Below, in pieces: positions 4,580 to 7,500 of a DNA stretch of 64,000 nucleotides. The first letter of the stretch is position 1; every line of letters starts with the position of its first letter. The translations under genes and the position numbers were made by a program. The notes under the pieces are model-generated. The model had not been told where the DNA came from. It saw only the letters and a program-made list of their open reading frames with translations, and searched no databases. Where the stretch lies: NCBI GenBank assembly GCA_003864495.1, contig PEDN01001388.1, positions 1 through 64,000 on the forward strand, read 5' to 3'. Origin of the DNA: Nemopilema nomurai. Taxonomy: Eukaryota > Cnidaria > Scyphozoa > Rhizostomeae > Rhizostomatidae.

Positions 4580-7500
4580 CTAAAGTGCATCTTCTTCTCT
4601 GTAGTCACCATTCTCCTCGTCTCGCAGAGAACCTTCCCTATCACTTGCAGGTGATTGTGATCTTGATCGCGAGGGACTACGAGAGCGTGACCTCGATTTC
4701 GACCTTGACCCTGATGGTGATTGCGAACCTTTTCTTTCAGAATCATTTCTCCTTCGAGGAGGAGAGCGGTGTCCTCTAGATCTGCTTCGTGACCGGGATT
4801 GGGATTTGCTTCTTTGGCGTTGCTTGCGTGAATCTGAATTTGAGCGGGATCTGATCTTCGACGTCGTCTGAAAGTTTGAAAGGTAAATGAAAAATATCCA
4901 CAAATAATTGTGAAAGATCTGCACAATAGAAAACAAAAACTGGTGCATAATGAACAATGAAGCAATAGCAGCTTTGAAAAATTTATTCAATCAGATGCTA
5001 AAATTGTTTCGCTGTGGCGTTTCTTACTCGATGATAATAATAAAATTTTTTTCTCTATAATAATAAACCTGTCACAATGCCAATGCAATTTTCAAAACAG
5101 ATAAGGACAATACAATTAACATTAACAAAAATTGATATCAGAAAGACTACATTTTTTGAAGAAAGATATCTATAAAGATACCTTGGGCTTCTGCTTCTTG
5201 ATCTACGTCTAAAAAAAAGAAATAAAATTAATCAGCTTTGTGGAGACCAAAAAATTCAGAAAGGACAAGCAGACTTCTGTGAAACTTTTTGTCAGCAAAA
5301 TACACAAGGGCTTCAAGAAATGATCTTCTTTACAACATAAGTAATTCTTCAAAAGCTATATTTACCGGCCATAATGGCCCCTTTCTTGATGAGATCTTCC
5401 ATAATAACCTCTTTTTTCCTTTGAGCTCATCTGGGATGCATCTACAAATAGTAAAACACATTGTAAGGTCCTCTCTCATTAAAACTTATATTCTGCTGCC
5501 ACATAAATAAACTAAGAAGCCTGCATGTGGGTTTGGCAAATCCCAAATGTGTTCTCTTCGGGAAAGACTAAAATTTAGAGTTGGCTCATCCTTTCAAATC
5601 AGCCAGCTGTTAACATGAATTGTCCTATTAGATATAACCCAGAGGTTCTGCTTTACAAACAGCAGGTTTTATAAAAATAAAATCTTAATAATTCTTTTAT
5701 TCTCCAAATTAAAATCTTATTAACTATTTTAGCAAAAATTATGAAAGAATCCAATGTGTGGGGCAAAATCTTTTCAGGCACACACTGGACAAATGAACAA
5801 CCTTGGCTAAGGTTTTAATGCAACAAGCAACCTTGAACAGACCATCATCTCTGCTGAAATGCAAACTTAACATGCTCTCCCATTTCATTGCTCTCCCTTA
5901 CCATAACCTTCACTCCCTTGAGTCAGAATATTCCCATTTCATTGGGATTTTGTGCTATTACAGTTGGGGGGCAGGTAGGTAAGGCAATATCACGAAACTC
6001 TTCCTGATGAATACTACTTCAACACTAAAACTGAAGATTGCTAGATTGATAGAACAGAAAGAACAGAAACTAACTACTTTTGTCACTCCATAAAATTGAT
6101 GAAGCATAATAGGAACACCAGCATCAAGAAAATCTAGTATGAGGGTGAAATCATCTTTCAACAATTTGACTGACTTTCAACATCTGCACTGAATAGACTT
6201 ACTCTTTCTATCTCCTTCTGCATATTGAACTTCCAACTCACGCCCAAGGCATCTAGCCCTGTCTTCATAATACAAGGCGTCTTCCGCATCGCGAATATCC
6301 TCAAATGTAAATCTTAGTTAAAGGTAAATAGGTATGCACAAACATAATAACTACCTTGTCCTTGTGACCATCTGGTCCAACTTGCACAAGATGACCTTTA
6401 ACCTTGAATTCTTTACAACTTTAACCCTTGGCTTTACACCTCGGTTCTCTATGATCTTTAACTTGACCTTTACTTTAACTTGACCTTTACAAATCACTTT
6501 ACTTGGTCTCTACTTGAATCTTTAAATGACTTTTGCGATTCCATGCCAAGCATAATTAGTTTGGAGTAGCCATTTGACCCTTGACTGTACTTGCCTTTGT
6601 TCTTTGCTTTTAAGATTTCATTTTTGGGTTACTAGCAACGTCCATGTCATGGAGTTTTAGAGCCTTAAATAGACTATCAAACATCCACTCTGATAGCTGG
6701 CCTCAGAAAACAACCAATGATAAGTAATGAAGTAAGCATTCAAGGTATAAAACTGTTTTTCCATACTTTTTGTTGAAGCAGAATTTAGACTTGTTTTTGT
6801 CTATCAATTGTGGATGAGTGACAAATCTATTTTACAACAAAACTTGGGACATTGTCAGATATATCTCATGCTTTGGTGCTTGAATTAAACTTGAACTTTT
6901 GTCTTTTTTATCTGAAGAAAAAATTTCAGAAGCAAATTTTAGAGTTGTTTGATCAAGTTTCCTTTTTAATAAATATATACTATTCAGCTTTATACTATTT
7001 CAACTTTAGCAAACTACAAATAACATTCATCTGAGCAAAATAATGTATCCTCCTCCAAAACATCAACTTACTTCCTACAATATCTTCAAAATGAAGCCTA
7101 AAATAGTTTTCAAAACCTCAAAAACTTTCTAACAAAGGCAAAACTTTGCCAAAAAGCAAATAGCCACAAAAAGTTTGCCACTTGGAAAAATCTGCTTTCA
7201 GGCACTTTTAGAAAAAAATTGCATTTTAGTAGCTGTGTATGAAGACTGTAAAAATAAAGTTATTGAATTGGAACTTCCTAACAAACAGATGTAATAAATG
7301 CTTTTAATATTATAATAACAATACTATATTACATCTATGCCAAATGATTGGCCACAGACTGTTGAAAAGATATTGAACATAGGCAAACCCTCTGGGTTCC
7401 CTTGTGTAGTAATCCAATGGAACATAAATATCACGAACTGGTCCGTACTTGCCAAAGATTCGCCTTAGATCTTCTGGCCTGTTTAAGCAAGAAAAACATT

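What the first reader, a model, noticed from the sequence alone, without database searches (positions are those of the whole stretch)
6307..7373. AT–AC minor-class intron interrupts RNP1 of an SRSF10-like gene
The donor ATATCTTTT, acceptor AC and branch-like CCTTTAACT are all in place, and only this junction restores QFEDIRDAEDAL. From memory, vertebrate SRSF10 also carries a minor intron tied to control of SR protein levels, so a shared position would imply an ancient regulatory design. Reading through the donor meets a stop soon after, so retention would abort the protein.
Basis: partly seen in the sequence, partly recalled or inferred. Interest (0 to 1): 0.75.

Follow-up and report, generated by a model that had tools for sequence, protein, structure and literature searches.

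The report
Ancient minor intron in jellyfish SRSF10
A jellyfish splicing-factor gene is interrupted by a rare "minor-class" intron, which protein data place at the same codon in corals, snails, mites and vertebrates, so a gene-control point known from mammals may be very old.

Summary
On the minus strand, intron 7373-6307 begins ATATCTTTT and ends AC, with branch-like CCTTTAACT whose adenosine lies 11 nt before the intron end. Of 10,000 junctions tried, only this one (plus two equivalent registers without AT-AC ends) restores GFAYVQFEDIRDAEDAL. The genome encodes U11, U12, U4atac and U6atac. The window is one haplotype of a cnidarian genome, probably a scyphozoan (guess: Nemopilema nomurai).
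New evidence: (1) a second SRSF10 paralog in this genome has a U12-type intron at the same codon and phase (ATATCCTTTT...AT, branch also 11 nt). (2) 89 of 236 listed database proteins continue Q-Y[P/L] there, the read-through of a U12 donor, in vertebrates, corals, molluscs, annelids, chelicerates and a hemichordate. The shared position is therefore supported.
The regulatory design is not shown. The paralog has an AGAGA cluster like the mammalian SRSF10 enhancer (0 of 500 shuffles), but internal U2 splice-site candidates in both genes are no better than chance. The window gene lacks AGAGA enrichment and has a TAAAG cluster of unknown meaning. No RNA was available. I rate this as a new member of a known kind.

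The parts
8081..8145 (-). Exon 1, coding part (MSRYSRPPNTSLFIRNVHPDTR); donor AAG|GTAGAT
7374..7478 (-). Exon 2, ending inside the Gln codon of RNP1 (...RGFAYVQ)
   Evidence: the C66 allele has a 1-base deletion at 7403
6307..7373 (-). U12-type AT-AC intron, 1067 nt, phase 2
7365..7373 (-). U12-type donor ATATCTTTT (one change, T at +6, from ATATCCTTT)
   Evidence: duplex with own U11 -6.4 kcal/mol; paralog -11.3
6316..6324 (-). U12-type branch-like CCTTTAACT; its second A lies 11 nt before the intron end
6307..6308 (-). AC acceptor
7310..7312 (-). First in-frame stop if the donor is read through (20 codons past the Gln)
   Evidence: ORF 7310..7573, minus
6396..6524 (-). Cluster of 10 TAAAG upstream of the branch (includes a 17-nt unit repeated 2.1 times); densest TAAAG cluster of the 64 kb on either strand (next best outside it: 4)
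   Evidence: 0 of 500 shuffles; motif picked after looking, function unknown
7066..7074 (-). Best U2-type 5' splice site candidate inside the intron, GAA|GTAAGT (GT at 7071-7070)
   Evidence: recalled matrix; no better than chance (247 of 500 shuffles as good)
6203..6306 (-). Exon 3, begins A|TTTGAGGATATT (completes Gln, then FEDIRDAEDAL)
5366..5441 (-). Exon 4
5182..5208 (-). Exon 5 (RS-rich); donor AAG|GTATCTTT, taken as a U2-type intron
4580..4867 (-). Exon 6, RS domain and stop; the window lacks one T (near 4853) that the C66 allele has, so the AG acceptor joins out of the RS frame in the window and in frame with the C66 base

Best explanation
The gene is a cnidarian (probably scyphozoan) SRSF10 ortholog. 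Its second intron is a genuine U12-type AT-AC intron, removed by the minor spliceosome; joining at 7374/6306 rebuilds RNP1 of the RRM. Because the site lies in mid-RRM and reading through it meets a stop after 20 codons, functional protein should require minor splicing, and retention or another donor should give a truncated product. The intron is inherited, not lineage-specific: it sits at the same codon and phase in a second SRSF10 paralog of this genome and, by read-through proteins, in corals and across Bilateria. Shown: sequence anatomy, shared position, presence of the minor snRNA genes. Inferred: that it is spliced by U12 snRNPs in vivo and that SRSF10 output follows minor-spliceosome activity as in mammals. 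Speculative: that purine-rich motif clusters in the two introns (AGAGA in the paralog, TAAAG here) belong to a competing major-class, autoregulatory branch.
For: AT-AC junction unique for the protein; no GT-AG alternative keeps RNP1. Joint chance of donor plus branch at a fixed junction about 1.4e-6. U12 104.2 bits, U11 91.4, U6atac 111.4, U4atac 56.9, each above its cut-off. Both alleles keep the sites. Paralog B (C32:43180-44630) has ATATCCTTTTC and GTCTTAACT with the same 11-nt spacing. 89 of 236 listed proteins read Q-Y[P/L] at the junction, 87 YP and 2 YL: 42 vertebrate, 2 coral, 2 mollusc, 4 annelid, 3 chelicerate, 1 hemichordate, 1 EukProt entry of unstated species, 34 unnamed. Mammalian mechanism: PMC7244321, review PMC8329584 (passages).
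Against: No RNA reads. The donor has T at +6 and pairs less well with the genome's own U11 than paralog B's. The only U6atac copy found is altered in the donor-pairing block: its duplex with both donors is weak (-3.6, -3.1), and a U2 control donor (intron 1) scores -4.7 with it. Read-through proteins are mostly gene models whose DNA I did not see; a GTATCC donor would translate identically (CAG TAT CCN), so AT versus GT subtype is not shown by them. The query and the profile were read-through proteins, so 89/236 is not a frequency; in the first search it is 8 of 120 listed. Five unnamed proteins (P0197, P0199, P0201, P0202, P0206) read QV..., fitting a GT donor just after the Gln codon in some lineage. 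AGAGA is not enriched in the window gene's intron (2 seen, 203 of 500 shuffles as many), and internal U2 sites are at chance level.
Confidence: 0.88

Rival explanations
1. The intron is U12-type and ancient but carries no regulation in this gene: it is a conserved constitutive minor intron, kept by inertia.
For: No AGAGA enrichment in the window gene's intron; its best internal U2 5' and 3' sites are matched by 247 and 216 of 500 shuffles, and those of paralog B by 173 and 186. Larue & Roy (PMC10639083; title, start of abstract and passages) say neutral processes may explain much of minor intron evolution.
Against: Paralog B's intron has 12 AGAGA (0 of 500 shuffles). The same intron is regulatory in mammals. 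The window gene has an unusual TAAAG cluster before the branch. The window's best internal U2 5' candidate scores above the gene's own used U2 donors (4.5 against 1.6-3.2).
Confidence: 0.45
2. The junction is an AT-AC or shifted GT-AG intron handled by the major spliceosome.
For: AT-AC introns of U2 type exist (recalled); the weak U6atac pairing leaves room for doubt.
Against: Donor is ATATCTTTT, not the ATAAG-like U2 form (recalled); U12-type branch at 11-nt spacing; the same site is U12-type in the paralog; no GT-AG pair tried keeps RNP1.
Confidence: 0.04
3. The two jellyfish paralogs share the intron only through a recent duplication, and the similarity to vertebrates is convergent or an artefact of gene models.
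For: Both paralogs lie 1.2 Mb apart on one contig; the read-through proteins are indirect evidence.
Against: Paralogs are only 66% identical over 91 aa; holding them with Rhopilema as one clade is marginally rejected (AU p 0.0475); coral, mollusc, annelid, chelicerate and vertebrate proteins share codon and phase.
Confidence: 0.05

Closest known systems
Mammalian SRSF10 exon 2-exon 4 AT-AC minor intron (Meinke et al. 2020, PMC7244321)
   Same: Same gene family, AT-AC ends, same codon and phase (through eagle, kiwi and hamster read-through proteins); read-through meets an early stop.
   Different: In mammals a major donor downstream in exon 2 leads to exon 3 with a GA-rich SRSF10 enhancer and a poly(A) site. 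The window gene has no AGAGA enrichment. Paralog B has the AGAGA cluster, but its U2 site candidates are at chance level and no AATAAA/ATTAAA follows its best 3' candidate.
Drosophila prospero nested U2-in-U12 AT-AC intron (passage in PMC8329584)
   Same: AT-AC U12-type intron with a purine-rich element in the prospero case.
   Different: Different gene; there both isoforms encode protein, here the alternative would truncate the RRM. A nested U2 intron is not shown here.
SRSF12
   Same: Bat and sheep proteins that I take for SRSF12 from their sequence show the same YP read-through (P0123, P0124).
   Different: The SRSF10/12 split is, as recalled, a vertebrate event; the jellyfish A/B pair is a separate duplication.

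Membership tests
U12-type (minor-class) intron, AT-AC subtype | Donor close to ATATCCTTT, with AT-AC ends fixed by the protein | tested here: met
   ATATCTTTT, one mismatch; junction unique
U12-type (minor-class) intron, AT-AC subtype | Branch motif close to TCCTTAACT about 10-13 nt before the acceptor | tested here: met
   CCTTTAACT, two mismatches, 11 nt
U12-type (minor-class) intron, AT-AC subtype | Minor spliceosome RNAs present in the genome | tested here: met
   U11, U12, U4atac and U6atac above cut-off; minor-spliceosome proteins not searched
U12-type (minor-class) intron, AT-AC subtype | Donor pairs with U6atac | tested here: inconclusive
   -3.6 kcal/mol with own U6atac against -7.9 with the Rfam consensus; a U2 control donor gives -4.7 with own U6atac
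U12-type (minor-class) intron, AT-AC subtype | Splicing depends on U12 snRNPs in cells | not testable with these tools
   needs RNA
SRSF10/12 protein family | N-terminal RRM closest to SRSF10/12, followed by an RS domain | tested here: met
   RRM_1 3.9e-19; SRSF10 of Exaiptasia, Xenia and Nematostella at 77-79%; RS domain in exon 6
Mammalian-type SRSF10 autoregulatory module | Minor intron at the same codon and phase | tested here: met
Mammalian-type SRSF10 autoregulatory module | Downstream major donor plus major acceptor inside the minor intron | tested here: inconclusive
   Candidates: window 7071 with 3' sites 6911, 7277, 7358; paralog B 43295 and 44072, 43897. As good in 247/216 (A) and 173/186 (B) of 500 shuffles, 5'/3'.
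Mammalian-type SRSF10 autoregulatory module | GA-rich SRSF10 enhancer in the alternative exon | tested here: not met
   Window gene: AGAGA 2, 203 of 500 shuffles as many. Paralog B: 12, 0 of 500; 10 of the 12 lie after 44072. Of five GA motifs tried, AGAGA is the only one reached by 0 of 500 in B; GAGA 77, GAAGA 296, AGAGA[ACG] 17, A[AG]AGA[AG] 74 of 500.
Mammalian-type SRSF10 autoregulatory module | Poly(A) signal in the alternative exon | tested here: inconclusive
   Paralog B: AATAAA/ATTAAA only at 43336, 43559 and 43929, none after 44072. Window gene: ATTAAA at 7308 and 6970; 6970 would follow the 3' candidate 7277 but not 6911.
Mammalian-type SRSF10 autoregulatory module | Dose-dependent switch to the non-coding isoform | not testable with these tools
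   needs RNA and knockdown

The most novel reading that the evidence does not exclude
The minor/major splice-site competition that sets SRSF10 levels in mammals already existed in the common ancestor of cnidarians and bilaterians. It is retained with an AGAGA cluster in one jellyfish paralog and rewired (TAAAG cluster, weaker donor) in the other, so minor-spliceosome activity has gated SR-protein supply since early animals.
Probability: 0.3. Interest if true: 0.7.

Novelty: new member of a known kind. Interest (0 to 1): 0.5.

Why it matters
SRSF10 is a documented case in which a minor intron sets the level of a general splicing regulator (PMC7244321). If the same intron gates SRSF10 in cnidarians, the open question of why minor introns persist gains one concrete, testable function older than the cnidarian-bilaterian split. 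A practical point: gene models that expect GT-AG seem to break this gene in many animals, giving '...VQYP' proteins in public databases.

Tried and rejected
Apparent second minor-class intron (exon 5/exon 6; donor GTATCTTT or ATATCTTT, acceptor AC in the RS frame): rejected. The C66 allele has one extra T at 4853 that puts the RS frame in register with the ordinary AG acceptor, so the oddity comes from a one-base difference in the window.

Nested major-class pair: I first took the internal U2 candidates of paralog B as support.

Other animal DNA for the same locus: genome contigs and viral-contig scans (one each) found no relative. More U12 donors of this genome through a JNK query could not be obtained; the tool was busy five times. 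Intron A against intron B by BLASTN: no hit. Rfam on 4400-8400: nothing at gathering score. A first tree (24 rows) placed paralog B among bilaterians (95/93); without its two longest branches B falls in Cnidaria with weak support 74/85, so I do not date the duplication.

Literature searches on this question: 16 papers; 41, 20 listed; 32, 15 listed; 4; 13. I saw the listings, two sections and passages of PMC7244321, and passages of PMC10639083, PMC8199999 and PMC8329584; in PMC3564746 six terms gave no occurrence. In these I saw no description of the SRSF10 minor intron outside mammals. I did not read the other papers, nor any supplementary tables or intron databases, so it may well be listed there.

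Full report
What is in the window. The gene runs on the minus strand from the ATG at 8145 to the stop at 4580 in six coding exons: 8145-8081, 7478-7374, 6306-6203, 5441-5366, 5208-5182, 4867-4580. Intron 2 (7373-6307, 1067 nt) begins ATATCTTTT and ends TTTACCTTTAACTAAGATTTAC. Of 10,000 junctions (100 donor x 100 acceptor positions), three give GFAYVQFEDIRDAEDAL; they are equivalent registers and only 7374/6306 has AT-AC ends. Of 49 open-frame GT/GC-AG joins none keeps RNP1. The donor and branch patterns are not rare by themselves in 64 kb (20 RTATCYTT, 12.3 expected; CCTTTAAC-N8-18-AC, 2 against 1.4). What counts is that both stand at a junction fixed independently by the protein: 32 of 127,982 nine-mers match the donor as well, and 730 of 127,900 points have such a branch 9-13 nt upstream.

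The genome. The window is contig C174:1-64000 of G000, 212.9 Mb in 226 contigs. It matches C66 from 600124 on at 94-99% in aligned blocks, most at 98-99%, so the two are haplotypes. The best named protein matches are cnidarian SRSF10. Paralog B is 90.6% identical over 180 aa to a Rhopilema protein. Nemopilema nomurai has a published 213-Mb assembly of 255 scaffolds (PMC6441219, passages); that G000 is this species is my inference. All four minor snRNAs are found above the Rfam cut-offs.

Allele check. Donor, branch and acceptor are the same in both alleles. C66 lacks one base at 7403 (exon 2), and the window lacks one T at 4853 (exon 6). With the C66 base the RS frame follows the ordinary AG acceptor, which removes an apparent second AC-ended intron. 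Assembly indels are the likely cause (inference).

Paralog B. On C32 (about 42.2-46.2 kb; other allele C66 near 1.82 Mb) a second SRSF10 gene, 66% identical to the window gene over 91 aa, has its intron at the same codon and phase...GTACA|ATATCCTTTTC...TGTCTTAACTCTTGCTTAT|GTTTGATG, i.e. AT-AT ends, branch again 11 nt before the end. A one-base register shift would give CAA and TA-TG ends, which I consider unlikely. Its two alleles differ at 6 positions in the compared stretch, none at the U12 donor, branch or acceptor; two (44048-44049) lie just before the U2 acceptor candidate. An SRSF2-like gene (my label) on C61 is open across this place without an intron.

Other animals. A U12 donor behind CA translates as Q-Y-P (CA|[A/G]TATCCN). 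The three protein searches reported 233, 32 and 342 matches, of which 236 distinct proteins were listed and fetched. Of these 236, 89 read Q-Y[P/L] right after RNP1, 111 were spliced-like by my pattern, 24 other (13 of which begin FE and are spliced-like by eye) and 12 lacked the motif. The 89 comprise 42 vertebrate, 2 coral, 2 mollusc, 4 annelid, 3 chelicerate, 1 hemichordate, 1 EukProt and 34 unnamed, by the source names in the listings. 8 of the 120 listed by the first search are of this kind; the later queries were themselves read-through proteins. Eagle, kiwi and hamster give GFAYVQYPFFRW[L/M]ISEGC, the SRSF10 read-through itself. Limits: the DNA was not seen, and AT cannot be told from GT subtype this way. 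For mammals the AT-AC subtype is published (PMC7244321, sections 5 and 6). Five unnamed proteins read QV..., fitting a GT donor after the codon.

Regulation. In mammals the minor donor competes with a downstream major donor that leads to a GA-rich exon 3 with its own poly(A) site; SRSF10 acts there and lowers its own output. In paralog B the best U2 donor candidate lies 115 nt downstream (43295) and the best acceptor at 44072, followed by 10 of its 12 AGAGA motifs. The AGAGA count and its clustering exceed all 500 shuffles, and B's other introns have 0-3.0 AGAGA per kb against 8.3. As a yardstick, the densest 465-nt stretch of the 64-kb window holds 9, on the strand of the helicase gene and within it, against 10 here. 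The U2 sites themselves are no evidence: 173 (5') and 186 (3') of 500 shuffles do as well, 247 and 216 for the window gene. No AATAAA/ATTAAA follows 44072. The window gene has 2 AGAGA (not enriched) and instead 10 TAAAG within 125 nt before the branch, the densest such cluster in the 64 kb and reached by 0 of 500 shuffles. That motif was chosen after looking, so I treat it as a lead. Its donor pairs less well with the genome's U11 (-6.4 against -11.3 kcal/mol).

Trees. With 22 rows the window gene groups with hydrozoans (88/83), B with Rhopilema (100/100), and all 13 cnidarian rows fall together weakly (74/85); holding A, B and Rhopilema as one clade gives p-AU 0.0475. An earlier 24-row tree with two long branches put B among bilaterians (95/93). 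The age of the duplication is open.

Verdict. The regulatory parallel rests on one AGAGA cluster in the paralog and on the mammalian precedent, and needs RNA.

Noticed in passing
L015:1501-1628 (G000:C36:4674385-4674512): The only U6atac copy found reads GAGCCGAGAGA where the Rfam consensus has GAAAGGAGAGA: three adjacent changes in the block that pairs with U12 donors (GG14/15 against CC5/6, PMC4980772 passages), although its match to this genome's U4atac looks intact by eye. Donor duplex drops from -7.9/-7.1 to -3.6/-3.1 kcal/mol. A canonical copy was sought with up to 3 mismatches and not found. Unexplained; could be an assembly error.
   Followed up: partly
about 18479-21944: hAT element with a 686-aa open frame (19608-21668, Dimer_Tnp_hAT 1.1e-06) present in this haplotype and absent from C66 near 618.6 kb; inverted ends CAGGCCTTCCTGGGAA, with AGTTG on both sides. 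A polymorphic, probably recent insertion.
   Followed up: partly
L020/L033 (G000:C32:43180-44630): Paralog B's minor intron appears to have AT-AT ends, a non-canonical U12 subtype.
   Followed up: partly
14274-17421: DEAH helicase gene (Pfam DEAD, HA2, OB_NTP_bind; DHX16-like by recall) falls in two overlapping frames in the window and in two frames in C66: assembly indels or an intron.
   Followed up: partly
P0121, P0122, P0132, P0184 (database proteins): Several coral SRSF10 models stop or jump at this intron (VQYPF..., GFAYGKRV..., GFAYLKQK...), which looks like gene prediction failing at a non-GT donor.
   Followed up: partly
6396-6524: TAAAG-rich stretch with a perfect 17-nt unit repeated 2.1 times, just upstream of the U12 branch site.
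   Followed up: partly
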